From NCBI GenBank assembly GCA_003118195.1, contig BEXV01000645.1, positions 104,368 to 168,367 on the forward strand: DNA of 64,000 nucleotides, read 5' to 3'. A program made the translations under genes and the position numbers. Positions 4,044 through 64,000 of this stretch are shown piece after piece. A model generated the notes under the pieces. That model was given only the letters and a program-made list of their open reading frames with translations, was not told where the DNA came from and ran no database searches. Source of the stretch: Hemicentrotus pulcherrimus (lineage: Eukaryota > Echinodermata > Echinoidea > Camarodonta > Strongylocentrotidae). Positions within the stretch are counted from its first letter, which is position 1. The number at the start of each line of letters is the position of its first letter.

Positions 4044-4444
4044 GGGCGTGTTTATGCTTCACTTTTTTTGGCCAGAATCAGGCATCTGTTACGCGTTTAG
4101 TTTAAAACACTGTTGCGTTCATGCTCACTTTTGTAGAATCACCGAAAAACGGCAATCACGATCGCCGATCATAAACTCACAAAAAGATACGTTTACAATT
4201 TATAAACACGTTTAAATGGGGTCAACGCACTGACCTCTAGTGGGTCTACGTAGCATGCACAGTGAAGGTTTGCGAATCCAGCTGGAAGACCAATTAAGGC
4301 CACACACAGAGAATTGCCTGTAGGAGCCAGATACATGTAAGTGAGCATAAACAGTACATCGTGGAACTGCGATTACAATGAGCGTTTACGATGAGCGTTA
4401 CAAATCGCATATTCTGCCTTCAAAAGTGAAGCATAAACGCGGCC
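4044..4444. mobile_element. PIF/Harbinger-like MITE with TAA target duplication
   Basis: 401 bp. Terminal inverted repeats share GTTTATGCTTCACTTTT (left GGGCGTG..., right complement GGCCGCG...). The element is flanked by TAA at 4041-4043 and 4445-4447. No transposase frame. The 3-bp TAA/TWA duplication fits PIF/Harbinger. Confidence 0.82.
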
Positions 4445-11932: not shown

Positions 11933-13884
11933 CAGCTCTCTATGTCAATATACCAGTAGGGAAGTGAACAGTTATCACTACAATTACAGTTATCGTTAGC
12001 ATTTCATAGAAAAGATGGTCCTGGTGCTGTACGGATTATTGTGGTTATTGACATTATTTGGAAACATTTTTGACCAATGTACCTACAAAATAAAAGTTGG
12101 CATTATAAACTGTTAAAACAGCTGTGTTTTTACTTCATTGATAAAAATGTTAAAACATGTAGAATTGTAGATGTTAGTTCATATTATTTATTATGAAGGC
12201 TACCTACATGTAAATGTTAATGTTGTTGTATGTAAACGCAACTCACAATTCAAAAACCTGCTACAATGTACATGTATGCTTGCATAATTGAAATTCCTAT
12301 CACAACACTTCTCAATATCTTGCTCAAAAATATTGTAAAGGCCCCTGTGAAGAGAGCACAAATACTGCTTTGATCTCTGAGTGACCTCCAAGGACTAAGA
12401 TCAGGTCTGATATACAAGACTATTCAAGGTTTGCCCTGATTGGTTGAAGCTTTCAATTTACACAGGAACTCAGCAACCAAGGTGTGAGAGAATTGGAGCA
12501 GTCCTGGCAAACAGGTTCCTCTGTGTTCATACATATACTTTAGTCCTTCTTTAATACTATGATTTCTCTTGCAATGTACACCTTTTTAGGTTCAATTAAC
12601 ATTATTTTCTTTAACCTCTTGATCTAATGTAAACCTGCAACATACAATTTGTTGTAGATCACATGTACACAGATTAAATAGATACGTATGGCTAGTTCAA
12701 CTCTTTCATGATGACCTGTGAGAACCAAATACAATTTGCTCTCTTTCTTTCAGTATCTTAATGTAATTTGGGCGTTTATGAAATTTCTTTTCTTAGTTCC
12801 ACTTTCTAAAGAGAAACATTACACAAAAATTAAAACATGATTCATGCAGTTTTTTTTTTATTTCCAAAGGTAACTAAAACATAACTATAAACATGATTTA
12901 TATATGATTGAGAGAGGGTACGTTTAAGTTTGATCAGTACACACATCATAAAGGACCAAGGTCAAGACCCAACAAACACAATTTAGACCCCTTGATTCAA
13001 CATTGTGTATTTGTAGAATACCTTTCCTCATTTGTCCCCATGTATAGCCAAATGAAAGCAGAACAGAGTTGTATTATCTTGAGTGTATAGACAGACAAAG
13101 ATGTGCAAACATTACCCTCATAAACATCCCAAGGAAACTACTTTGTAGTATGCTTGTTAAAGGAATACATCACTAATTGTACTTTCCTGCTTCAGCAGAA
13201 ATGTATGCAACACATAAAGCTTATGCCTGACCAGAATACAACGTACACACTATAATTAATGTATATGCACACAACAGCTAAACCCAGTAGCTTATTTCCT
13301 TTGATTGTTCATTTTTAGTCAGTGTATGCCTATTTTGTCCCATTTTGAAATATCTTATAAAATCAGAATATTGTTTTTACAGGTTATCAAACTGAGCAGA
13401 CTGATACCTACATGTACATGTATAACAGCCTCCAAACATCCAGAATACTTGTAGCTAGCAATAAAAGACAGAAGTCCTTTAAAATACATGTCCACATAGA
13501 TAGGACTACATACATGTATTGTAGTAATAAAATACACCATTCCTTTAAAGTAGATGGGACTACATTGTAGCGATAAGCTCCTGTCATCAAGCCCATTACA
13601 TTGTGTTGAATGATGGACATGTATTCTATGAATGATGGGAGGGTTTACTTCTCAAACATGACCTAGATAGGTTGTGAAGCAGGACCACCTGTGCATACAC
13701 CACACACAAGCTCAACTTTCTTCCCCTCTTCACATCCATCCATCCATCCTTGTACATCATATCCACACAATCAATACTTTCAAATGATTCCTACACTACA
13801 TGATACTACACACCATAATATGCCTCTATGGCACCATCAAGGATCACCTGACACCTGTACAAGTACAGTTACTGTCCATATTTA

Positions 13885-27061: not shown

Positions 27062-27409
27062 GACCAGTCTAGTCTACATGGTGGGCCAGAAACAAGACCA
27101 GTCTAGTCTATTTGGTGGGCAAGAACAAGACCAGACAAGTTGTTCTGAGGGGTCAGGTACAAGACTAGTCTAGTCTATATGGTTTGCCAGGAACATGACT
27201 AGTCTAGTCTATCTGATGGGCCGAGACCAGTCAAATCTATATGGTTGTCCAGGAACATGACCAGGCTAGTCTATCTGATGGGCTGAGGTCAGTCAAATCT
27301 ATATGGTTGTCCAGGAACATGACTAGTCTAGTCTATCTGATGGGCCGAGACCAGTCAAATCTATATGGTTGTCCAGGAACATGACTAGGCTAGTCCTTTT
27401 GGTGGGCCA
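27062..27409. repeat. Minisatellite in the receptor 3' UTR, overlapping its stop codon
   Basis: Monomers of about 31-35 bp share the core CTAGTCTATNTGGTGGGCCA followed by GGAACA. Between 27195 and 27380 they form a higher-order dimer of exactly 62 bp present three times (starts 27195, 27257, 27319), with the next copy at 27381 running into the terminal codons of the receptor. Upstream units (27062-27195) are single monomers of about 34 bp and more divergent. Confidence 0.9.
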
Positions 27410-27583
27410 GGAGCTTCTCTGAGTACTTGAGGTTAAGAACCCTTAGATCCAGGACTACCTGTAGACACTTGTGGAACACCAGAGCATCAGGAGCATGTGT
27501 AGCATAGAGGAACTTCTCCAGGACACCAAAAAGGTGGGTCTGGAGGCTGCGTACCTCATCCACGCTCTGGATACCTTTACGAT
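27390..27583 (-). CDS. Nuclear receptor terminal exon: LBD helices 10-11, stop codon
   Basis: Residues 636-699 and a TAG stop. It opens [15 protein letters not shown], parallel to DRSGIENVNSVEALQ in Rev-erb-beta, and ends [19 protein letters not shown]. There is no AF-2 helix after helix 11, as in Rev-erb. The position of the haem-ligating histidine (LNNMHSE in vertebrates) is tyrosine here (Y689, codon 27423-27425). The stop codon lies inside the first unit of a minisatellite that continues into the 3' untranslated region. Confidence 0.93.
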
Positions 27584-30500
27584 CTTCATGGAAGGAAAAA
27601 GATAAAACACAAACAAGGGGTTATGAGGAATTCCGGTTCGGTTTAAAATTCTTTCTGAATTGCATCACTTGAAAAGAGGGATTTATGAATGCATAAAGAC
27701 CCAACAGGTTTGGTTGGGTAAAATATGCTCTAATATGAATGATATTTCAAAGTGTCTATCTAACAGAAAAAAATAATAAATGTGTATGTTTTGAGGACAT
27801 CAGGAGGAATGCAATTCACACCCCAATTTAAGCTTCTGGTTTGAACCTGCAAGGAAACAGACCATACCAAGTCTAAGCTACGCAATTACAACATTATGAA
27901 TAAGACAGGGAAGTCAGATGAGCTTTGTCAACATGTTAGCTAAAAACTTTCTGATAAGCAAAGGGTGAAAACAAGGACANNNNNNNNNNNNNNNNNNNNN
28001 NNNNCCCCACCCCCTCCGAAACCCCCTTCCTCTTCATCAGTGATAATACAATAGAATTACACAAAATCACAAGTCAACAATTTTTTAAAAATAAAGAAAC
28101 ATCTTTTATCCAGCCATTCTACCAAAGCAACTGACCTGATGCTACTAATATAGATGCTTGTAACAGTGCCCTCTCTGGCAGAGATAGGTTTAGCTGGTTG
28201 AGTTGTGAAGCTATCTTGGACAATGCAAGAACTAGATCTCCAACATCTGCATAGAAATAAAGCAGGATCAAAGTAACTCGATGAAAGATCAAACAAATAA
28301 AATAAGATTTCATGAATCACAGTCACGATGTCATATTACAGCTAGTTCCTAAAATACAAATAATATAGAACTACAGTTCAGGACTCAATCGTAGCAAGTA
28401 GCTTCGGTTGGTTACGTTGCAACCAACTGGTAATAGAAAAGTTTTCAGTGTTGTTTCTGTCAGTCATAATGAGAGACGTTGCAACCCTTATGACATACCA
28501 GGTGAAGTCACCAAGGTGGATACAACCATCCATACAGGGATACCTCTAACACCATGTTTCAATATAGAAGATTTAAATACCCACCTGATTTTTGGAGAAG
28601 ACCTCTGTGAAACTTCTCTCCATTGGTGAACACAATGAAGTCACTCTCTGGGTCCAGGATTTGACTGAGTTGTAGGAGCAGCACTTCAAAACAGCCCGCC
28701 TTTAACAGGGTCAGCTAAAAAGAAAATATAACAAGATTGTTTGATAAAACAATGAAATAGAGGGAAAGCATTTTACATTTTAAAAAAAAGAAATATATGA
28801 ACATTTACACACAAGCATATTTTACTTTCATCCTGGGTTATTATCTTTTATAATTGTATATAATGAGTTTACATTTTAAAAGGGCACAAACATAAAAGCA
28901 TATGAGCTTAATATCACCACAATACTTCATCTTGGTCAGGCTTTTCAGCCTATTGTGATACAGTTTCAAAATCCAAGGATCATTTATTTATTTGCAGTTT
29001 GAAAGTCTTCATCCAGAGGATAATCTCTTTTAACTGAAAACATGATAAGAGCTCAAATTTCTTTTATTTTTTAATAGGCCAATGACAGTCCTTATTTTGT
29101 GAATGTTTCTCAAATCCCCTGACTTCTCTGTTTCCGTTGAAGAAAGGAAGCTAATTTTCCATGTTTTCCCTGATCTCTGTGAACCCTGCCACTTTACCTG
29201 GTCTTCATGCGGTATGTCTTCAAAGCCTTCTGTAGCTTTAGCAAAGCTCACAATACGACTGATGATAGGTGCAAACCGATCACAGAATGCATCCTCTTTG
29301 CCTCCTACCGATAACTCCAGGGGTAGTCCGCATAAACCATTGGAACCGTGCGTCTGGTAATGAAGGGAGGGAAATCAGTATCAAAATAGAAAATGCTTAA
29401 CAATCAGTTGTGATTTATATAGCACATGATAGTTAATACTATAGTATACCTTGATTTTGTTATATATAGGTTTAATTACCCAGATCATTAAATTCATGCC
29501 CACATACATTTTGTGCACCATTTATAAAAGCATTTCTAGCATAAGATTTTAATGAAGGCATACTGGTACAAACATTTATTTGTACAAAGCAACAACTAGG
29601 GTAAATTTGAAAAATAATTGATTTTTTTTTTCTAATTATAATTATGTTTCATGGTTAACTTTTGGAAATGGAGAGAGTGGTAAAAAAGCAAATCTTAAAT
29701 GGTGAACTTGACTTGAATACAGCCGAGAAAATTTCAACCTGTTTCAAAGAAGAAACCTTCCATGTTCAGGGAACAGGAAAAAATGATGGCGATACGTAAT
29801 CATGATAACTTTGCAGCACACAAAAGGGAGAACCTGAAAACCAAGGATTTTCCCATGCATCCTAAACAGTGTGATAAAGATATATCCTCTGCTGAAAGCC
29901 AGATGGATGTTAACTTAATGTTAGAAGATGTGAGTTAACACTCTTTTAGCTGGCGCATGAGATGATACAGCTTTGCTTTAATATGGCGTCTTTTCATCTC
30001 TTACTTACCTCTTTGCCATCAGCTGCGTGTAGATGCTGTTCACTGCGTAGATGTTTCTTGATGGCCACTCTAAGGATCTCTTCTAGACTTGAGAACTGAG
30101 CATCAATCTCTGTACAGTAGGCCTTGCTCAAAGAATCTACCAGACCCATACCTTGTAAGACATGAAGCATATGAGGATTATGCCCTCCACCAAGCAGTCT
30201 AGGAGCTCTTAGTCTGTTCCTGTGAGTGGCCTCAGGGTGGTATGACAGTCTTGTGTTATCTGTGGAGCAGCCGTTTGGTATCCTTCCATTCTGATGTGGA
30301 TTGACTACAGAGTTCTGTACCTTGGAATGGTTGTAGCCATTCTTCAGTTCTAAGTGCGGCTTGGCGTTGCTTAACCTGGCTTCAAAGCTGTGATGAACAC
30401 CATTGTCATACAGTCCATTCATGGGTGGAGATTTAATACTCCCAAGATTCATATTCTGTAACTTCTCTGGCATCTGATGAAAGTGAGGGTTGGGATATGG

Positions 30501-33500
30501 ATTGCCATGGTAGCCGTTGCTAAGATTTTGGTGGTTTCTTCTGACTTCTTCATCGTGATGTAAGCGTGCAATCTGTTTACGTCGAGGCAAGAGGTATTGC
30601 TTCTTGTCTGATGCCAGGTGATCTAAGTCATGATAAGTAGGAGATTGATCTTCCTTCTTGATAACTGATGAAATCCTTTCATTAATGTGAGGATGATGTG
30701 CTGGGTAACAATGGCATTCATTTTGAATGTCTCTTTCAACCTTGATGCTTCGATGGACACCACCCTGCATTCCATTGAGTCCATTGTTTGGGATGTAACC
30801 ATTCATTTGACCACTACAGTACTGGGTCAGAAGCAAGTCCTGGATGCTTGTCTTTTTCTCATTAATATGAATGTCTTGCACACCCTTCCCAAAACTAGAA
30901 CCATTCCTTCCATTGCACTCACCCCATCTACCATTGTGTTTCACTTCTGTAACATCCTTTATGCTTGTCTTAGATGATGACCAATCAGGTTTACACTGCA
31001 CTCTGTCATTACTTTTACTGGGCTCCCTCCCAACATCTTTCATTTCCTCCAAGCTGCCCTGTACATCTCGTTCTACAACGTCTGATATTGCACACTGCTG
31101 AGACTCTGTGGTCGCTAGGGGCCCATCCTCGCTAGCAACCATTGCTTCTTGGCTTGGAGGTCGGCTTAGGTCAAGAGGTTTCTCATCCCTGACAGTGACA
31201 TCATTGCTCTTGTTTGCTATCTCCTTCATCACCTGAGTCAGTTTCATCTTCTCTCGTTTGGACATCCTTCCAAAACGAACAGCTAGAATAAAACAAAATT
31301 CATGTAATTGAGTAAAGGGATATTGTACTGTACAACAGACAATAAAACCATCACATTTTATTTATAAGAGATGTTACTGGGTCTGTAAAACCTCACAGAA
31401 ACTTCAATATCTACAAAATCAATACAGTATGGGAATATATTTGTAAAGTAATACTAATATAATCATTGCTCGTAAACAAAAGCTAGATAAATGGACATGT
31501 AGCAGAATTTTGCAGAAAATTAATCAGTTATATTATGCTTTTACAAAGTAAGATCTGACGTAAACAACTGGTACTAATTTCTACTATAAGAATAGTCAAG
31601 ACATGCAATACTGTTACATACCGTTTTTGGACATGCCCATATGAATGCACTTCCTGAGTCTACATGATTGACATTGGTTCCTATTCTTCCTCTGTATCAC
31701 ACACTTTCCTCCATTTGGGCAGGGTCGGTAGGTTAGGTTGTGCTGTACTGTTCTGCGGAAGAAACCCTGTAAAGAAGAAGGATGGTGAGTGATTATTACC
31801 ATTAAAGTATCATCTTCAATAGTATTAGTTTCTGTCACTTTTATCATTCTGTTGCCTCTCTCTCTCTCTCTCTCTCTGTACCACACACTTCTCTCCATTA
31901 GGGCAGGGTTTGTAGGTCAGATTGTACTGTTCAGTCTGACAAAAAAAGAAACATTGTAAAAGTTCATAATTGATACTTGATATAATTGATGAGCATTACG
32001 GTATTAAAGAAGTGTAGCATTCCAGTGTGGATATGTATTCTTGCTATTTTATTAAAACAGAAACAAGCACGCAGGGTAGATAAAGTTTAACATAATGGTT
32101 ATTGTTCTTTTACATAGCATTTGAACTTTAAAAATTACAGCTAATGTTGATATTTGGTATTTGGTTAAAAACCAAGATTCCCTCTTTAATATCATCTTTT
32201 AAGCAATGAATTACTTTATATTTCAGAAATAATCAAATGTAATAAGCAGGAGTCCAGCACATCTAAAACTAATAACAGCTAAAAACATATTTTGACACGT
32301 TTATTTCTTTTTCAGGTGCATTAGGAGCCTATATTCTTGCACATTTCCATTGAACAAGGTCAAAATAATTTGATTTCAGCAAGGAATACTGATAACAGAA
32401 TGGAGTATAATACCATTTTCACATCTATGAAAGATAATATCTGAAACCCAATAGTATTTTTGAAAAGGGAAGGAAATGATTGTTAAGACCTTGTACAGGT
32501 AGGACTGTTATTTTAAAGAATTCCTTTTACAAACCACAGGAAAAACGGAACAAAGAAATTCTAATCCCAGAGTTCATGTAAAATATGAGTGAGTATGAGC
32601 CGCATGGTTGAATATCAAAAGTAGGAAGCTCTTTGTAAAAATGACCTCCACTTTCTCAATTTCTCAGAGATGTATTTTGTGAGAAAAGTGACCTCCTGGA
32701 GTCAATAAAGAATGAATAGTGGTTGAAATAACAGAGTAATAGTAGAGATAATTACAAAACAACCTGCATGAGAGGACATGAATGAGGTACAAGATATTGT
32801 GTTGTTACTGTGGTCACTCACTGGTCAGCTTGTCCCCATATGACCTACTGACCACAGCTAGTCTTTGGGTCAAGGATGTTTTAATCAGGAAATTCAAATG
32901 AGATTGTAAGCTTTCAGTTTACATTCATTCATAGGACATGTTTAGCTTGCCTTTCTCACAATCAGCCCCCAATAGTCAGCCCTCTTGAATAAACTCATCA
33001 CAGGTGATATACAATCAGGTGCATTTGTAATGTGAATAAAGGAGGACTTGCTAACTGCCATATGCATGATAAGGATATGAAAGTAAATTAAAAGACAAAT
33101 AAAATCAAACATAATTTTGGATGAAATAAAAATCATGGGTCAAGGTTAATTCAATCCTCCATATAAATTAAAGGGAGTAGTAATATTGTTTCTACCACTT
33201 TCTTTCTTTTAGACATGGATGAAAGAGCTTCCATCCAAACTGACCAGCTGTGTGTTGGGTCAAGGCTGGAAAGAAAGAAGGGGCACAGTGGTCCTATCAT
33301 CTGCATTGTGAGCTGCTGTAAGCTACACCACTCACTATAGGAAACAAACATGCAAACGGAGTGTAGAGTTTCAGATTTGCCATGAAGCTGCATGACATGA
33401 CTGTTATTGTCTAATCCATTATATTTCACTAAAACAGGCAACAATTTGAATAAATCATTAAATCTTTGAACTTCTTAATAAAATTCTGAAGGCTTATAAA

Positions 33501-42500: not shown

Positions 42501-44082
42501 TTCAAGAAATATTTAATATAAAAATTTACCAGTGCTCCTGGTAAATTTTGATAAATTTTAAATAGCGCCTACAGCCGTACAATGGTAGCTGCGACCATGA
42601 CAATCTCAGAATATGTAGTTGTGATATACAATTTCCAAACGGAAATAGCTAATCGGTCGATTTTAGTCAAGAATTATTGTTTTATAGCTTAATTAATATC
42701 TTGACCTTGAGAGGGAGCTATACAACATAAAGAGTTTATTATTTACAATTTCATAACTTTAGACTCGATTTCAACCGCGACAACGATCACTGAATATTGC
42801 AGGATCGTATATAATTCCGATATGTTTATTTGAACCAAATTCATGACCCCATACCAAAACTTTGTATTAACTTTAATCAAACATTTTATCAGAAATATAT
42901 ATACCAAAAAGTACACAATCTAATGACACAGATCTAAAAGTCAATTTTCCTAATGCCTGAATTGCTGATAGACATCTATGTAATGCATGTTTACATGTAG
43001 CTAAAGGAAGCATCAAACAAAGTGATTTTTTCATTTTGTTTCTGGTGCCTCCAAACCTAGTGGATATCACATTTACTTATCTAAAATTTTGAATCTTTGT
43101 CTACTTATCTTGGAGGACATCTTCAAACAAAGAATTACGATCTTTTAATCGGCTTTGACTACAAAGCCAAATCACAAAACGAAGCTTGATTGGTTAACAT
43201 GGAAACATATTGCAGTTCTTTGGGCTACTGGTTGCTAACCATCTGTTATAGTCAACACAATACAATACAAAGGCATCTAGCATGCAGGATGTAGTAGAAG
43301 TATGATTAAAGTACAATCAGATGGGATGATAGTCTCCTTGGACAGACGCCACCAACGCCGAGGGGGGCGGGGCAGATTGTATCAAGGGGGCGGGGCCAAG
43401 CGATGGCGTGGAGAGGAAACATTCTTGCGATTAAAAAAAGTGGGCCGTTGACCCAGTTTTTATTTCCTGGGTAAACAATGAAAGCTAAGAAACCTGGTTA
43501 ATCGGTAATAATTTTGTTTTCATGCCCCAATTCTTGTTTCATAAAAAAAGAACTCAGCACAGAAAATGATGTCATATCCATTTCTTGCTTCTGACTTGTT
43601 ATTACCGATCTTAGTTGTTATATATCTGGCTTGTTTCTCTATCTATAATACAAGATAGGTTATCTGACATAGCAAGGTCTACATCATTGGGATACAATAC
43701 AGATCAATCTCAAGATCACTGCCAGAGAAATAACTTTAATCATAGGAATGAAATTGCACAATTAACATGAGACAAAAAAGGTTGAAAAGTCCTTGCACAA
43801 TTTGTGTTCATGAAAGCTGGAATAAAAAAACTGGTGCATTGAATAGAATTCCACTGTTCATATTCTTCAACAATTGCACACAGATATGCAAAATGGATGT
43901 GGATTTTGCGGGATACATGTAGGCAAATATCTTTGGTGTAATTACTCAGGGCCAGCTACCAAGGTATGATTTCAGAATCTACAATCTTACCTTGCATCCT
44001 TCGCATGAATGTACTCCATAGTGAAAGCCTGATGCCTTGTCTCCGCATACCTGACATAGGATGTTCATGTCTTTATCAAAAT
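27390..44082 (-). CDS. NR1D/NR1E-type nuclear receptor (Rev-erb/E75/E78-like), seven coding exons, N-terminus missing
   Basis: The spliced CDS is 44082-43991, 31766-31622, 31282-30009, 29353-29198, 28714-28585, 28246-28136, 27583-27390 (2102 nt). All junctions are GT-AG and phases match throughout (0, 1, 0, 0, 1, 1). It encodes 699 residues plus a partial first codon. Residues 1-84 are a two-finger C4 DNA-binding domain with P-box EGCKG and an RFGR C-terminal extension. Residues 79-503 are a long hinge; about 460-699 are the ligand-binding domain with the FAK...GF...DQ signature. The chain ends [10 protein letters not shown], matching the Rev-erb terminus without helix 12, so a DNA-bound, corepressor-recruiting transcriptional repressor in the nucleus is inferred. 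The second finger has C-X5-C spacing as in Rev-erb/E75, not the C-X3-C of PPAR. Zinc finger 1 enters in phase 1, so an upstream coding exon exists but was not identified. Orthology to NR1D, E75, E78 or another NR1 group is unresolved from sequence alone. Confidence 0.93.
27980..28004. other. Assembly gap (25 N)
   Basis: Unknown bases in the last receptor intron, followed by a C-rich stretch. Confidence 0.99.
28136..28246 (-). CDS. Nuclear receptor exon: LBD helices 7-9
   Basis: Residues 599-635, entering and leaving in phase 1. It encodes [20 protein letters not shown] then [17 protein letters not shown], the region aligning with GDLL...FSEKLNAL.LSDEE..L..AVVLVSADR in Rev-erb. The acceptor is ttctatgcag and the donor is TCAG|gtcagt. 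Confidence 0.92.
28585..28714 (-). CDS. Nuclear receptor exon: LBD helices 4-6
   Basis: Residues 556-598 plus one base. It starts [20 protein letters not shown], continuing the signature from the previous exon's HEDQ, and corresponds to the vertebrate Rev-erb segment DQV.LLKAGTFEVLMVRF. The acceptor is ttttctttttag and the donor is TCAG|gtgggt. Confidence 0.93.
29198..29353 (-). CDS. Nuclear receptor exon: LBD helix 3 region
   Basis: Residues 504-555, phase 0 at both ends. It contains [20 protein letters not shown] and [10 protein letters not shown], the nuclear-receptor LBD signature (phi-AK...PGF..L...DQ). The layout matches Rev-erb and E75 (FAK..GF.DL...DQ). The acceptor is attaccag|ACG and the donor is CAG|gtaaag. 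Confidence 0.93.
30009..31282 (-). CDS. Nuclear receptor exon: DBD extension, very long hinge, start of LBD
   Basis: Residues 79-503. It opens with [12 protein letters not shown], the A/T-box extension that contacts the AT-rich 5' flank of a RORE half-site in Rev-erb and ROR. The hinge is Asn/His/Gly/Pro-rich and mostly low-complexity. It contains PLDLS (114-118, a CtBP-binding motif), IKVE (258-261) and IKKEDQSP (286-293, matching the phospho-dependent sumoylation consensus). Residues from about 460 ([20 protein letters not shown]) look like the first LBD helices. A roughly 400-residue hinge in one exon is longer than I expect for Rev-erb or E75. The acceptor is tctag|CTG and the donor is GAG|gtaagt. 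Confidence 0.95.
31622..31766 (-). CDS. Nuclear receptor exon: zinc finger 2
   Basis: Begins at [20 protein letters not shown] and ends ...CIHMGMSKN plus one base of the next codon (residues 31-78). Zinc ligands are C46, C52, C62 and C65, with D-box PNGGK between the first two. The acceptor is cttctttacag|GGT and the donor is ACG|gtatgt. The preceding intron is about 12.2 kb. A partial, decayed copy of this exon lies 110 bp upstream in the gene direction. Confidence 0.95.
31856..31877. repeat. (CT)n microsatellite truncating the exon copy
   Basis: About 11 units. On the gene strand it is (GA)n and replaces the 3' part of the duplicated zinc finger 2 exon. Confidence 0.92.
31877..31938 (-). 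pseudogene. Decayed partial copy of the zinc finger 2 exon
   Basis: Read on the minus strand this gives [20 protein letters not shown], clearly homologous to [21 protein letters not shown] of the functional exon 110 bp downstream. DNA identity is about 85% by eye. It retains a good polypyrimidine tract and CAG acceptor but has lost the GFFRR start, and its 3' half is replaced by a (GA)n microsatellite with no donor. It is most simply a truncated tandem exon duplication. Inclusion in a transcript would destroy the DNA-binding domain. Confidence 0.75.
34060..34193. repeat. Degenerate minisatellite, unit about 18 bp
   Basis: Repeats of TAGACCAAATGGNNAT-type units (TAGACTAAATG, TAGACCAAATGG, GGACCAAATGACCAT). 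It resumes as CAGACCATATGGGAACAGAC at about 34817, after the TA-flanked element, showing the element split it. Confidence 0.75.
34197..34760. mobile_element. TA-flanked element with CCGTATTTGCCGGCG ends and a tRNA-like insert
   Basis: 564 bp. Ends are inverted: CCGTATTTGCCGGCG then GATAACGCCGCACC on the left, and CCGTATTTGCCGGCG then TAAACGCCG on the complement of the right. Flanking TA at 34195-34196 and 34761-34762 fits Tc1/mariner/pogo-type insertion. It interrupts an older minisatellite. A tRNA-like segment and a long A-run lie near its left end. No transposase. Confidence 0.78.
34282..34375 (-). pseudogene. tRNA-Leu-like pseudogene or SINE head inside a MITE
   Basis: On the minus strand GGATAGCCGCGCGGTCTAAG resembles the D-arm/A-box of a eukaryotic tRNA-Leu, and GAGTTCGACTCCC at 34294-34306 resembles the T-loop/B-box. 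About 40 bases separate them, as in a long-variable-arm tRNA. The anticodon and T stems do not pair well, so it is degenerate. It runs directly into a T-run (A-run on the plus strand, 34257-34280) that would terminate Pol III. Confidence 0.6.
37425..37985. repeat. Degenerate tandem repeat, unit roughly 80-100 bp
   Basis: At least five copies of a block CTACACTAATTTGCATTCTG then AGAACA...AACACCAAAGTCTAGAA, at about 37437, 37485, 37567, 37657, 37728, with a weaker one near 37905. Copies are diverged and contain indels. Confidence 0.7.
39080..40060. repeat. Long degenerate G-rich satellite-like array
   Basis: Nearly 1 kb of GTGGTAGGGTGGTAGAG-type sequence, G-rich on the plus strand. Similar composite blocks (GATAGGAGGG...TAGCAGA...GGGTGGTA) recur at about 39262, 39430, 39673 and 39955, suggesting an eroded higher-order unit near 165 bp. 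The minus strand is open in places only because of this composition. Confidence 0.7.
41138..41652. mobile_element. Hairpin-rich non-autonomous element
   Basis: Ends share CTNTTTTCACACTGG in inverted orientation, followed inward by TTTTGCTTAANCCCG. The interior repeats TTAACCCCGTACTATAGGTG several times in both orientations. Its right part (41564-41627) is a stem of two 29-base arms, 27 matching, around a 6-base loop. No clear target duplication was found. Confidence 0.7.
43327..43460. promoter_or_regulatory. Intronic GC-box island
   Basis: Two identical 11-mers GGGGGCGGGGC (43363-43373 and 43386-43396), 23 bp apart, sit in otherwise AT-rich intron DNA about 530 bp downstream of the zinc finger 1 exon. 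A RORE match, AAACTGGGTCA (-), lies next to them at 43449-43459. It could be an internal promoter, or a mobile repeat that happens to be GC-rich. Confidence 0.35.
43991..44082 (-). CDS. Nuclear receptor exon: zinc finger 1
   Basis: Encodes residues 1-30, including [20 protein letters not shown] followed by CK. Zinc ligands are C9, C12, C26 and C29; the P-box is EGCKG once joined to the next exon. The acceptor is a TAG after a T-rich tract and the donor is AAG|gtaaga. The exon begins with two bases of a split codon and ends in phase 0. The break between CEGCK and GFFRR is a classical nuclear-receptor intron position. A methionine at residue 5 lies just before the finger, so an internal start here is possible but not required. 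Confidence 0.95.
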
Positions 44083-46700: not shown

Positions 46701-47366
46701 TGACAGATCAAAATATTGCTAATTGCATTAAAGGGACAGGTAAGATTCCAGAGGAGATAACCAGAAATAGACAAGACCCCTCTCTTTTCAAGGAGCTGTA
46801 TTTCAGATGAAGGAAATCAAGAACCTGAGATATTCATTTCAAGAAAATAGGTCAGCTTAAACCACAGCTAGACGACCACACACACACACACACATCCTAT
46901 TCCCCTTCCATCTACCTAACCTATATAAGTAGATGGGTTGAATACATATCTCTACGAGTATCATCTGCGTTCAGACATCTTCAAATATTACATGTTGTAA
47001 ATGCTAACTTCAATCACCCTATTTATATTCTGCACTACCTCAGTCAAAAATTTCTAAACATACGTTTGTTTGTCTGCCTCTCATCTTGGGAGATCTGTCT
47101 TTCGCACATGATTATTCAATTTAGTCTGCATTTAATTCCACATGGCTACACCATGTATATATCCGTCTGCACGTTTAGAAATGTGTAAAAATTCTCTAAT
47201 CAAAAAGGGGAGATCCTTCAATAAGATCTGCCCTTAAAGGCACATATATGTACTGTACATGTACATGCATACAATGTCAATGTCAAATGTTAATTTGATG
47301 CTAAAGAGATTATCAATAAAATAAGGAAAAGTAATACTTATATAATATAATTCAGGTAATAAAGAG

Positions 47367-47878: not shown

Positions 47879-48012
47879 NNNNNNNNNNNNNNNNNNNNNN
47901 NNNNNNNNNNNNNNNNNNNNNNNNNNNNNNNNNNNNNNNNNNNNNNNNNNNNNNNNNNNNNNNNNNNNNNNNNNNNNNNNNNNNNNNNNNNNNNNNNNNN
48001 NNNNNNNNNNNN
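47879..48012. other. Assembly gap (134 N)
   Basis: Unknown bases upstream of the receptor, ending in a G run (GGGGGGGG). Confidence 0.99.
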
Positions 48013-49019: not shown

Positions 49020-49300
49020 CTTTTGTTTACTCTCTCTCCTCCTTGTAGGCAGCCGAGGAGACATGCTTTCGTGTTCTGTTCTTGTCTCAGAGATATGTGG
49101 GTCGCGGAGTGGCGTATTTGGGTCGGGGCGCTTGCCTGTCTGTATTATTAACTGGGTCGCATTTTTCCATGACCCACTTTCGATTCATCCTGGTGAAATC
49201 AGGCTTGAGACGGTGTGAGAGCCGCTTGTTAACCTCTTTCCAGCCGGGGCCCCGCCCGCCGCTCGCCAATTTCAGGCTTCGCTCTTATTTTCATTACCGT
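49020..49300 (-). promoter_or_regulatory. GC-rich block, candidate promoter of the nuclear receptor
   Basis: Local G+C and CpG rise sharply, with an Sp1-type box (CGGGCGGGGCCCCGG on the minus strand near 49248-49262) and open frames on both strands, as is usual for unmethylated CpG-rich DNA. It lies about 5 kb upstream of the zinc finger 1 exon in the right orientation. A perfect RORE, AAAGTGGGTCA, is on the minus strand at 49170-49180, and an inverted TGGGTC/GACCCA pair brackets 49154-49176. Neither a start site nor an N-terminal exon could be fixed. Confidence 0.35.
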
Positions 49301-50301
49301 TGCCAAATTGAACTGGGTCTTGTATGTTTTTCAACAGCAATCGCATTCTTGGCTGACTTGCGCAGTATGAGCAACATCTTTCCTTCTCTTACGATTCGGC
49401 ATCTCTCTTTGTTTGCAAATCTTATTCTAGAATCTGGAACATTGATAAAAGGCTCTTGTTTTGGCAGACCTTTTTTCTGCATCTTCTGTTGGAATCCCAT
49501 CAGACCCTCCCTCCCCTCATCCCATGAAGAACCCTCAACACAAGGAGCATTCCATTCCAGCCTCCTTGTCTCATTTCATTGATTTTGTTGCCCTCTTTAC
49601 TAGAATGTTGACGAAAAAAGATACTGAAATTGTTTTCAAGGGATAGAATGGGAACTGTTAAATGTGTCAATTGCCCATTTGTATCTCACTCTGTGTTGTG
49701 CTTGCCCTAGTTCACTCTATTTTGTCTGCTCTAGTTGTTCAAAAAGCTGTACATAATGTGACATTACATAGCCTTTGTTATAAATAGGTTACAGACAAAT
49801 ACCAATTGAATGGTACACCATGTAATTGGTTAAAAAGGAGGTCTGTCAATCAAATAACAGATGGCCAACCTTGAAGCATATCGTAACACTTTTAGATACA
49901 TAGTCAATTTATGCAAACACACATATGGATATATATCCAATTAGAAAAAAATATTGATCAGAATATATTCTGGTATCATCCAAGGTGTATAAATTCATAC
50001 TTTACGTTAACATTTTTAGTTTTATGGACGTTTTTAGAACAATTTAACTGACCAGGAAGGACGTACATGAACATGTAGATATCTATATTTCTGACAAACT
50101 TGTGTCTAAAAATATCCATGTTCTAAACACCTCGGATGCATGTGCTTGTGATATATGGTTCTACATTAAATGAGTAGACCTACAACGCTACATGTATTTC
50201 ATTTTATCCTATACTAAGAAATGCTATTATAGGAACACAATGTATGAATTTCCAGGATAAATCTAAAAGACATGGTTATACTACATGAAGTTACACTTTA
50301 A

Positions 50302-50539
50302 AGGGGTGTAGCATGGCAAATACTGGTTAACATCATCTACGACTTCTTTTGGCAACTACACGTAAACGAATGGACTTGATTAACGCTAGCGTCCGCAAAA
50401 CAGACCGAAGTTCTCCTTATGCTTCGGTTTCACGTACATGTATGTTGCACGCACGTGAATACTGTGGGTCGCATCGTCCATAGTCGTATTATACCCGATT
50501 GGCCCCGATTGGCATGGGTCTTATCATGCTACACCCCCT
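50302..50539. mobile_element. TTAA-flanked MITE, family B
   Basis: 238 bp, flanked by TTAA at 50298-50301 and 50540-50543. Terminal repeats are AGGGGTGTAGCATG and, on the complement of the right end, AGGGGGTGTAGCATG. The interior is CpG-rich and contains an E-box CACGTG. Confidence 0.82.
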
Positions 50540-51258
50540 TTAATACAAGCTAATAATTTTTTTAATGAAAATGCATTTGTTTTTATATTTAAAGAAGATA
50601 CATGTACATGTAGGTGGTCTTATAAGGATTCATTTAATAACCAAGATTCCTTGTACTTGAGCTTCAAACCAAACCAACCAAATCTTATTCATTTGACGGT
50701 GTATGTAATATGATTTCTTTTAATAATCTGTTTGTTTTCTACAAGGTGTCATTGATGTGATTGGGGTATTGATGTTTACCCCCCTGAATCATGCAATAGT
50801 GAAATGGACTTTTCATGTAGTAGCACAGACAGAGCCCATCTTGAAATAAATACAGCATACTTGTATGATAAGCCCCTACCCCCACCCCAGTGATGCAGGA
50901 AACAGTGACGCAGGAAACAGCACTGCCTGTAAAAAGTCGATGGATTAATTTACCTTTTTGTGCAATCTGAGGGATTTTAATATGTTTATATTTTTGCTCA
51001 CAAAAAAATCATCACATTCGAAGGTAAATAAACCCCCTCATAAATTGATGGTGTGATTGGTGTCCTGTCCATGCACTGCCTTGCAGTGTTTGTAAGCTAA
51101 ACAGTCTTTCATTCACAATCATTTTGTCATTTTGTAGGGATTCATATAAATCTGAGAGAAAGTTTGCTGTGAATGAGTTAATAGGGCTGAACCACTATGC
51201 CAGCCAGCCTAGAGCCCGAGACGGACGGATAGGAAACCAGAGATTAAGAAGAGAATAC

Positions 51259-51333
51259 TAATTGGGTCACAGCTCCAGGAAGACAGGGCAGGTATTACGC
51301 TGACCTATTTTCACAGTCATTATGACCCATATT
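51259..51333. promoter_or_regulatory. Cluster of three RORE matches, candidate enhancer
   Basis: Three perfect matches to WAWNTRGGTCA lie within 75 bp: TAATTGGGTCA (+, 51259-51269), AAAATAGGTCA (-, 51301-51311) and AATATGGGTCA (-, 51323-51333). The two minus-strand sites are spaced 22 bp start to start, about two helical turns. A non-canonical E-box CACGTT follows at 51396-51401. The cluster is about 2 kb upstream of the candidate receptor promoter. Confidence 0.5.
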
Positions 51334-52204
51334 TTGACATAATAAAAACATGTCGTTAACCCACGGAGAACAATTAATACCCTATACAAGAGGATCACGT
51401 TGTCGGCTATCAAAACAGTGAAGTCGTGACCATGCTAATTCCCATTTAGCGACTCATCATTTTGTGGATTTATCTTTCACAGTATTAAAGAATAATGTGA
51501 CTATAATATATCCGATAAAACTCGCATCAAATTGCAGTCAATATACATGTACATGTACGAGGTTAAGAGGGGCTCATAGCATTATTTACCCTCACCTTTA
51601 CCAGAGTTTCTGGAAGCTTTTCTTTCTGCAATAAGCATGCATTTGTTATCATATTAAAAAACTAAAAATTCTGTTCCCTTTGATTTAAGTCCTGAATTTA
51701 TTTTTAATGTCCTATTTTCCATATTACTGCGGAGGCCAGGAGCCCTATGCACATTTATACTCATTGTATGATAACAGTTAAATAAAATAGTTAAATAGAT
51801 CTCAGTAGATGTGACAGGTACTGCTATGTCAGCAAACATTATTGATGTTATACAACATGTGTAGATACATATGTTTATTTACTGTCTGAGTAACGAAGTG
51901 CATGCAACGGCAAAGGGCCAAAGATTAATAGGCTAAAGTTTTCAGGTTCAGGCAAGGACAAGAAAAATACAATCTTGGTATTTGAATCATTTTAATCAGA
52001 CTTACATAACTTAAAAAGAATTTGACCTATTAGCTTTATCATATGACAATGATAAGGCCTACTGGAGATTTTGGTGAGTAAACTGCAACAAAAGGGAACA
52101 TCCAAGATAACTCTTATTCTCATAAAAAAATAGGGCCTGTGTTTTTTATAATACCGGTAACCATCAAATATTGGTTGGTTAGTTTAACCTGATTTTTAAG
52201 AAAG

Positions 52205-63599: not shown

Positions 63600-64000
63600 C
63601 GACTATGATCTTGACATACTAGCCCTAAAATGTAATTGGATCATCTTCCTATCATTATACTTTCACCATGTTTGAAGCTCTACCTCACAAAGTTCTTGAC
63701 ATATTATGATAACAAGGGTAATATCTCTAATTCCAAAAATTGAAATCTATGACATTTGACCTTTGTTCTACTTACCCTAAAATCTAATTAGGTTGTCTTT
63801 CTATGGTGATACAACTGCATGTATCACAAAGTTGAAGCTCATATCTCTAGTTGTTCCTGAGATACTGGAATATCAAAACTGATACCTGTAATTTCAGGCT
63901 TTGACATCTACAATATATGAGATGTCACAATAATGAGGCTAATTCCTGGAGTTACACCAAAATCTCATCAGATTGTCTTCTTGTAGAGATACAATATACC
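63600..64000. repeat. Low-grade tandem repeat running off the window
   Basis: Blocks with CCTAAAATCTAATTAGGTTG and AAAGTTGAAGCTCATATCTC recur at about 63624, 63777 and 63957 (spacing about 155-180 bp), diverged. The array continues past the right edge. Confidence 0.5.

What the first reader, a model, noticed from the sequence alone, without database searches (positions are those of the whole stretch)
51259..51333. Three perfect ROREs within 75 bp upstream of a Rev-erb-like gene
TAATTGGGTCA (+), AAAATAGGTCA (-) and AATATGGGTCA (-) all fit WAWNTRGGTCA; the latter two are 22 bp apart in the same orientation. By a rough composition-based estimate one or two matches are expected in the whole 64 kb on both strands. 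Rev-erb and ROR bind such sites, and vertebrate Rev-erb genes are known targets of this pathway, so this looks like an autoregulatory enhancer. A nearby CACGTT resembles the E'-box of clock genes.
Basis: partly seen in the sequence, partly recalled or inferred. Interest (0 to 1): 0.78.

Follow-up and report, generated by a model that had tools for sequence, protein, structure and literature searches.

The report
RORE clusters inside sea-urchin Rev-erb gene
A sea-urchin Rev-erb gene has two tight groups of the DNA sites that Rev-erb and ROR receptors normally bind, probably in its own first intron, which suggests (but does not prove) that the gene is controlled by its own receptor family as in vertebrates.

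Summary
Three perfect WAWNTRGGTCA sites lie at 51259(+), 51301(-) and 51323(-). This is unusual: 1 of 3000 permuted motifs puts three hits in 75 bp of the window, and 0 of 450 Markov sequences do.

The minus-strand gene is a true NR1D/Rev-erb, 96% identical to Strongylocentrotus purpuratus LOC115917889, so this is very probably a sea-urchin genome.

The geometry needs correcting. The conserved first coding exon was not found in the window. The cluster therefore most likely lies in a first intron of at least 19.9 kb, 7.2 kb before the zinc-finger-1 exon, unless that exon sits in the 134-bp N gap at 47879-48012.

Between 43 and 52 kb, 6 of 7 RGGTCA half-sites carry the RORE extension, against 3 of 63 elsewhere.

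Best reading: a cis-regulatory region read by NR1D/NR1F receptors. Auto-repression is plausible but untested; conservation, chromatin and binding could not be tested. The CACGTT is uninformative (11 in the window). Rev-erb auto-regulation is known in vertebrates: a new member of a known kind.

The parts
51259..51269 (+). perfect RORE TAATTGGGTCA (module A)
51301..51311 (-). perfect RORE AAAATAGGTCA (module A)
   Evidence: 22-nt, 91% similarity to the RORE region at 46843-46863
51323..51333 (-). perfect RORE AATATGGGTCA (module A), 22 bp from the previous site, same orientation
49094..49104 (+). one-mismatch RORE TATGTGGGTCG (module B)
49115..49125 (+). one-mismatch RORE TATTTGGGTCG (module B), 21 bp from the previous site
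49149..49159 (+). one-mismatch RORE TAACTGGGTCG (module B)
49170..49180 (-). perfect RORE AAAGTGGGTCA (module B); same 11 letters as the RORE of the medaka bmal1a promoter
   Evidence: medaka site in PMC5553892, passage
49247..49270 (-). ATTGG (inverted CCAAT) and GGGCGGGGCC GC box beside module B; candidate internal promoter, inferred only
   Evidence: sequence; CpG o/e 0.77 and 1.01 in bins 49001 and 49201
46844..46854 (+). solitary perfect RORE AAAATAGGTCA
43449..43459 (-). solitary perfect RORE AAACTGGGTCA, about 0.5 kb 3' of the finger-1 exon
43991..44082 (-). coding exon for zinc finger 1 ([15 protein letters not shown]...EGCK), with splice acceptor upstream
31622..31766 (-). coding exon for zinc finger 2
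30009..31282 (-). coding exon: GRIP box (C-terminal extension) and hinge
29198..29353 (-). LBD exon
28585..28714 (-). LBD exon
28136..28246 (-). LBD exon
27388..27583 (-). last coding exon as modelled (stop TAG at 27392-27390 and two further bases included); ends ...[12 protein letters not shown], no helix 12
47879..48012 (.). assembly gap (134 N): the only gap in the window 5' of finger 1, where the missing first coding exon could hide

Best explanation
The interval is part of a cis-regulatory region of a sea-urchin NR1D (Rev-erb) gene. It most likely lies in the long first intron, 5' of the DNA-binding-domain exons. The region holds two dense modules of extended GGTCA-type half-sites, at 49.09-49.18 and 51.26-51.33 kb, plus solitary sites. 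Proposed mechanism: NR1F (ROR) monomers on these sites activate the gene or an internal promoter near 49.2 kb; the NR1D protein made from the gene competes for the sites and, where two sites lie about two helical turns apart (21-22 bp), recruits NCoR-type corepressor. The result would be negative feedback. Shown here: the sites, their non-random concentration, the identity of the receptor and its conserved DNA-reading region. Inferred: occupancy, internal promoter, direction of the effect, autoregulation.
For: Nine perfect sites against a mean of 2.11 in shuffles, none of 100 reaching 9. Three in 75 bp: 1 of 3000 permuted motifs, 0 of 450 Markov sequences. Of 70 RGGTCA half-sites in the window 9 carry WAWNT; between 43 and 52 kb it is 6 of 7, elsewhere 3 of 63, close to the 3.9% background. 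Label shuffles reach 6 in 7 consecutive half-sites in 4 of 20000 cases; none of 354 permuted hexamer cores exceeds 4 in 7. Second module: TGGGTCG is the only one of 2129 canonical 7-mers with 3-6 copies that has three copies within 60 bp, and those three carry WAWNT. All four WAWNTGGGTCA of the window lie between 43 and 52 kb. The site at 49170 has the letters of the medaka bmal1a RORE (PMC5553892, passage). Both modules lie in CpG-retaining bins (11 such bins of 99 scored between 44 and 64 kb). The receptor's best solved DBD match is NR1D1 and its best LBD matches are NR1D2 and NR1D1, with [12 protein letters not shown] against AVRFGRIPKREK in the region that reads the 5' extension. A review states that two nearby ROREs (everted, 20 bp apart; or 26 bp apart in Bmal1) allow REV-ERB to recruit NCoR (PMC6956161, passages).
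Against: No conservation, chromatin, binding or expression data for this locus. The first coding exon was not found, so distance to the main promoter is unknown. No RevDR2. If A is demanded at the sixth position, as in the review's WAWNTAGGTCA, no cluster remains: the five such sites are at 13659, 38748, 46844, 51301 and 61108. The bounds 43-52 kb, the run length 7 and the variant TGGGTCG were chosen after seeing the hits; runs of 6 and 8 give 58 and 15 of 20000 shuffles, and a run of 3 is not significant (1880 of 20000). TGGGTCG would fail an entropy filter of 1.5. The one-mismatch cluster test is passed by 32 of 2000 permuted motifs. A 12-nt, 92% inverted pair (51020-51031 and 51582-51593) encloses module A; probably chance, but a transposon remnant, which could also explain the CpG, is not excluded. 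GGGTCG is not, as far as I recall, an accepted RORE core.
Confidence: 0.5

Rival explanations
1. The sites are chance matches in AT-rich intron; the reader and I noticed them because the gene happens to be a Rev-erb.
For: A reader scanning many known motifs over many windows will meet rare clusters; the one-mismatch test is only modest (32 of 2000); with the stricter A-form consensus there is no cluster; much of so long an intron is presumably neutral (inference).
Against: Single-motif controls are strong (1 of 3000 and 0 of 450), a second module exists, and the half-sites there are extended 6 of 7 times against 3 of 63 elsewhere.
Confidence: 0.24
2. The sites are read mainly by other half-site receptors, for example the thyroid hormone receptor, so the region is a hormone response element rather than a Rev-erb feedback loop.
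For: In S. purpuratus the orthologue LOC115917889 is listed among Rev-Erb-like genes upregulated by thyroid hormones (PMC10250714, section 3.4.3 read); thyroid hormone and Rev-erb elements share the AGGTCA core (the DR4 of AGGTCA is named).
Against: No RGGTCA direct repeat of spacing 0-8 (so no perfect DR4) in the window, and one inverted pair, at 4219, far from here; the 5' extension WAWNT is the ROR/Rev-erb signature. The section read does not say that the effect on this gene is direct.
Confidence: 0.12
3. The first coding exon sits in the 134-bp N gap (47879-48012); the clusters are then about 1.1 and 3.2 kb upstream of the start codon and the reader's word 'upstream' is right. This is a rival for the position, not for the function.
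For: The exon codes a serine run, a kind of sequence that often falls in assembly gaps (general knowledge), and a CpG-rich stretch with a GC box lies about 1.1 kb before the gap.
Against: The coding part alone needs about 130 bases plus splice signals, which barely fits if the gap length is true; first introns of nuclear receptor genes are often very long (recalled).
Confidence: 0.13

Closest known systems
[quoted passage not shown] 1996; title seen in a reference list only)
   Same: ROR/Rev-erb sites in a gene of the same family, implying auto- or cross-regulation
   Different: Here several single extended half-sites, probably intronic; no RevDR2; no functional data
Paired ROREs of the mammalian Bmal1 promoter (26 bp apart; PMC6956161, passages)
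   Same: Two extended half-sites about two helical turns apart, the arrangement proposed to allow NCoR recruitment
   Different: Different target gene; here three sites in module A and four in module B, three of the latter with GGGTCG
Medaka bmal1a promoter RORE AAAGTGGGTCA (PMC5553892, passages)
   Same: Same 11 letters as the site at 49170
   Different: A bmal1 promoter in a fish, with one RORE and one RORE-like site
Arthropod E75 (NR1D) with HR3 (NR1F), required for the circadian rhythm of an insect (PMC4263706, search listing and abstract start only; also named in PMC9939569, passages)
   Same: Same receptor pair; E75 is a long gene with alternative 5' ends (recalled)
   Different: Alternative promoters here are only inferred; no rhythm data for this gene

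Membership tests
RORE / Rev-erb monomer site | WAWNT(A/G)GGTCA sequence | tested here: met
   Exact match for 51259, 51301, 51323, 49170, 46844, 43449; not exact for 49094, 49115, 49149, which end in TCG
RORE / Rev-erb monomer site | stricter form WAWNTAGGTCA | tested here: inconclusive
   Of the sites between 43 and 52 kb only 46844 and 51301 have A; 43449, 49170, 51259 and 51323 have G
RORE / Rev-erb monomer site | binding by ROR or Rev-erb in vitro or in vivo | not testable with these tools
   No binding data
RevDR2 element | two AGGTCA half-sites as direct repeat with 2-bp spacing | tested here: not met
   No RGGTCA direct repeat with spacing 0-8 in the window
NCoR-recruiting paired ROREs | two ROREs in close proximity (20 and 26 bp in the described cases) | tested here: met
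   51301 and 51323 are 22 bp apart; 49149 and 49170 are 21 bp apart, the first being a variant; described cases. Spacing only; recruitment not tested
Autoregulatory enhancer of an NR1D gene | located in or near an NR1D gene | tested here: met
Autoregulatory enhancer of an NR1D gene | conservation, open chromatin and response to the encoded receptor | not testable with these tools
   No related animal DNA, chromatin or reporter data were available
NR1D (Rev-erb/E75) receptor | C4 zinc-finger DBD and GRIP-box extension of NR1D type | tested here: met
   zf-C4 2.2e-30; best solved chain NR1D1, 123 bits, but PPAR-gamma is close at 118 bits
NR1D (Rev-erb/E75) receptor | LBD of NR1D type without helix 12 | tested here: met
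   NR1D2 112.5 bits and NR1D1 89.7 against 76.8 for TR-beta; the protein ends right after the matched stretch, as the NR1D2 chains nearly do; helix 12 judged absent from the ending, no structure was predicted. With the whole protein as query the top PDB chains are PPAR-gamma and RARs, whose chains hold both domains
NR1D (Rev-erb/E75) receptor | heme-ligand histidine (His602 of NR1D1) | tested here: not met
   Tyrosine at that position; of the 120 listed hits 96 were scored: 91 His, 5 Tyr, the five being echinoderm. Not treated as a defining feature of the family, but heme sensing cannot be assumed

The most novel reading that the evidence does not exclude
Echinoids run a two-module Rev-erb/ROR feedback element inside the Rev-erb gene. 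One module uses CpG-containing half-sites (GGGTCG), so receptor binding could be gated by DNA methylation. The receptor itself has replaced the heme-ligand histidine by tyrosine, giving a feedback loop that is uncoupled from, or differently coupled to, heme.
Probability: 0.07. Interest if true: 0.65.

Novelty: new member of a known kind. Interest (0 to 1): 0.4.

Why it matters
If the modules are functional, ROR/Rev-erb control of the Rev-erb gene could reach back to the ancestor of echinoderms and chordates, and sea urchins would offer a simple system in which to test it. My paper searches on sea urchins (15 of 22, 15 of 1777 and 10 of 126 papers listed) listed, by title, none on regulation of an echinoderm NR1D gene by such sites; they cover open-licence papers only, and I read one section and passages, not whole papers.

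Tried and rejected
Rejected: the CACGTT E'-box (11 in the window); RevDR2, DR4 or other perfect RGGTCA direct repeats (none of spacing 0-8); origin of module A by tandem duplication (9 of 11 core bases alike, 4 of the next 11) or from a repeat family within the window (by eye the flanks of the nine sites differ, except that 51301 and 46844 share 22 nt at 91%). A 12-nt imperfect inverted pair around module A is taken as chance, not disproved as a transposon end. Rfam (gathering threshold) and ARAGORN (bacterial code) found nothing in the window. The CpG-rich bins at 50.2-50.6 kb were first counted as regulatory; they overlap a short element with 19-nt inverted ends, so only the bins at 49.0-49.4 and 51.2-51.6 kb are used as support.

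Led nowhere: conservation across species (the DNA collections offered hold viral, metagenomic and prokaryotic sequence, phages, plasmids and E. coli; I searched none of them for this animal locus); the window's own genome; finding the first coding exon in the window by tblastn and by ungapped six-frame matching (best 9 of 21 residues); a paper on the sea-urchin clock that names this gene (none seen in the listings); the text of the work on the human Rev-erb promoter (not among the papers listed; only a reference title was seen).

Full report
OBSERVATION. WAWNTRGGTCA is in print as the ROR element (PMC5553892, PMC10902330, passages). The whole window has nine perfect matches against a mean of 2.11 in 100 dinucleotide shuffles (largest 8). 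On the real sequence, 1 of 3000 column-permuted motifs puts three or more hits into 75 bp, 20 of 3000 put two or more, and 6 of 3000 reach nine hits; 0 of 450 Markov sequences (orders 1, 3 and 4, 150 each) show three in 75 bp. A reader can choose among many motifs, so these figures overstate the surprise for the window as a whole. The motif is, however, the one expected for the gene's own product, which lowers the number of fair trials. A review gives the site with A at the sixth position (PMC6956161, passages); in that form five sites remain (13659, 38748, 46844, 51301, 61108) and no cluster; the other four, all with G, lie between 43 and 52 kb.

THE GENE. On the minus strand seven coding exons with standard splice signals join to one open frame of 699 residues: finger 1 at 44082-43991, finger 2 at 31766-31622, GRIP box and hinge at 31282-30009, LBD at 29353-29198, 28714-28585, 28246-28136 and 27583 to the stop. 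Pfam finds zf-C4 and Hormone_recep. With the LBD alone the best solved matches are NR1D2 (112.5 bits) and NR1D1 (89.7), ahead of thyroid hormone receptors (76.8); with the DBD alone NR1D1 is first (123 bits), PPAR-gamma close behind (118). With the whole protein the top chains are PPAR-gamma and RARs, whose chains hold both domains. The nearest protein in the database is S. purpuratus LOC115917889 at 96% identity over the whole query, followed by Lytechinus pictus (84%) and Diadema antillarum (61%) (7976 best candidates scored). I infer a sea urchin close to, but probably not, S. purpuratus. 'Rev-erb-like gene' is therefore right.

GEOMETRY. The S. purpuratus and Diadema proteins begin with about 40 residues before finger 1 (ending AKRKLPVEWELRDRTEPGALDF), and starfish and a brittle star share the end of it. 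tblastn and an ungapped six-frame scan (best 9 of 21 residues) do not find this exon in the window. The finger-1 exon starts behind a splice acceptor in the matching phase. So the exon lies beyond base 64000, or inside the 134-bp N gap at 47879-48012. In the first case the cluster is inside a first intron of at least 19.9 kb, 7.2 kb before finger 1 and at least 12.7 kb after the first coding exon, and 'upstream of the gene' is wrong. Two relatives are modelled to start at the methionine of MNILC (P0004, P0011), so an internal promoter is possible but unproven.

A SECOND MODULE AND A REGIONAL BIAS. At 49094, 49115 and 49149 (+) lie TATGTGGGTCG, TATTTGGGTCG and TAACTGGGTCG, followed by a perfect RORE at 49170 (-) with the same letters as the RORE of the medaka bmal1a promoter (PMC5553892, passage). 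TGGGTCG occurs four times in the window, at 49098, 49119, 49153 and 50465, the last within a short inverted-repeat element. Of 2129 canonical 7-mers with three to six non-overlapping copies it is the only one with three copies within 60 bp; an entropy filter of 1.5 would exclude it (its value is 1.38), and none passes that filter with such a span. Next to the module on the minus strand are ATTGG and GGGCGGGGCC, in bins with CpG o/e 0.77 and 1.01. The broader bias: of 70 RGGTCA half-sites, 9 carry WAWNT; 2 of 52 below 43 kb, 6 of 7 from 43 to 52 kb, 1 of 11 above 52 kb; the background frequency of WAWNT is 3.9%. The bounds were set after seeing the hits. Shuffling labels over the 70 ordered half-sites gives 6 in 7 consecutive in 4 of 20000, 6 in 8 in 15, 5 in 6 in 58, and 3 in 3 in 1880 of 20000; none of the 354 permuted cores with at least seven sites exceeds 4 in 7. 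Against this, clusters of four or more one-mismatch sites in 110 bp occur for 32 of 2000 permuted motifs, and a 12-nt imperfect inverted pair encloses module A, so a transposon remnant is not excluded there.

MECHANISM. A review states that REV-ERB binds WAWNTAGGTCA as a monomer, suppresses ROR activation there, and can recruit NCoR where two such sites lie close together (everted, 20 bp apart; 26 bp in Bmal1) (PMC6956161, passages; similar in PMC10712084, passages). Sites 51301 and 51323 at 22 bp, and 49149 and 49170 at 21 bp, come near that spacing. The receptor keeps the DNA-reading region. I therefore favour a ROR-activated, Rev-erb-repressed element. Direction, occupancy and target promoter are inferred. 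The orthologue is listed among genes upregulated by thyroid hormones in S. purpuratus (PMC10250714, section 3.4.3), so a thyroid hormone reading stays open, although no perfect DR4 is present.

VERDICT. Real and non-random site clusters in a real Rev-erb gene, with the position relative to the gene corrected and a second module added. Function is untested. Rev-erb auto- and cross-regulation is known in vertebrates (title seen; otherwise recalled), so this is a new member of a known kind.

Noticed in passing
window 27393-27584 (-), residue Y in ...[15 protein letters not shown]: The heme-ligand histidine of Rev-erb (His602 of NR1D1) is tyrosine here and in P0001-P0004 and P0008 (three echinoids, a sea cucumber, a brittle star), but histidine in three starfish (P0006, P0007, P0009) and a crinoid (P0011); of 120 listed relatives 96 could be scored: 91 His, 5 Tyr.
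   Followed up: partly
window 31852-31933 (-): A partial, diverged copy of the finger-2 exon ([21 protein letters not shown]) that ends about 85 bp before the true exon and runs into a GA microsatellite: it looks like a relic of an exon duplication.
   Followed up: partly
window 50297-50543: A 247-bp element with 19-nt inverted ends (89% complementary), TTTAAA/TTTAA at its borders and rich in CpG, looks like a small DNA transposon (MITE).
   Followed up: partly
window 27197-27383 (-): Just after the stop codon a repeat of period 62 (unit starts at 27383, 27321, 27259, 27197) in the presumed 3' untranslated region.
   Followed up: partly
P0002 (Lytechinus pictus), 650 aa: The database model lacks zinc finger 1 and starts MVSYSGFFRR, recalling the one-finger E75B isoform of insects (recalled); it may be real or a gene-model error.
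   Followed up: no
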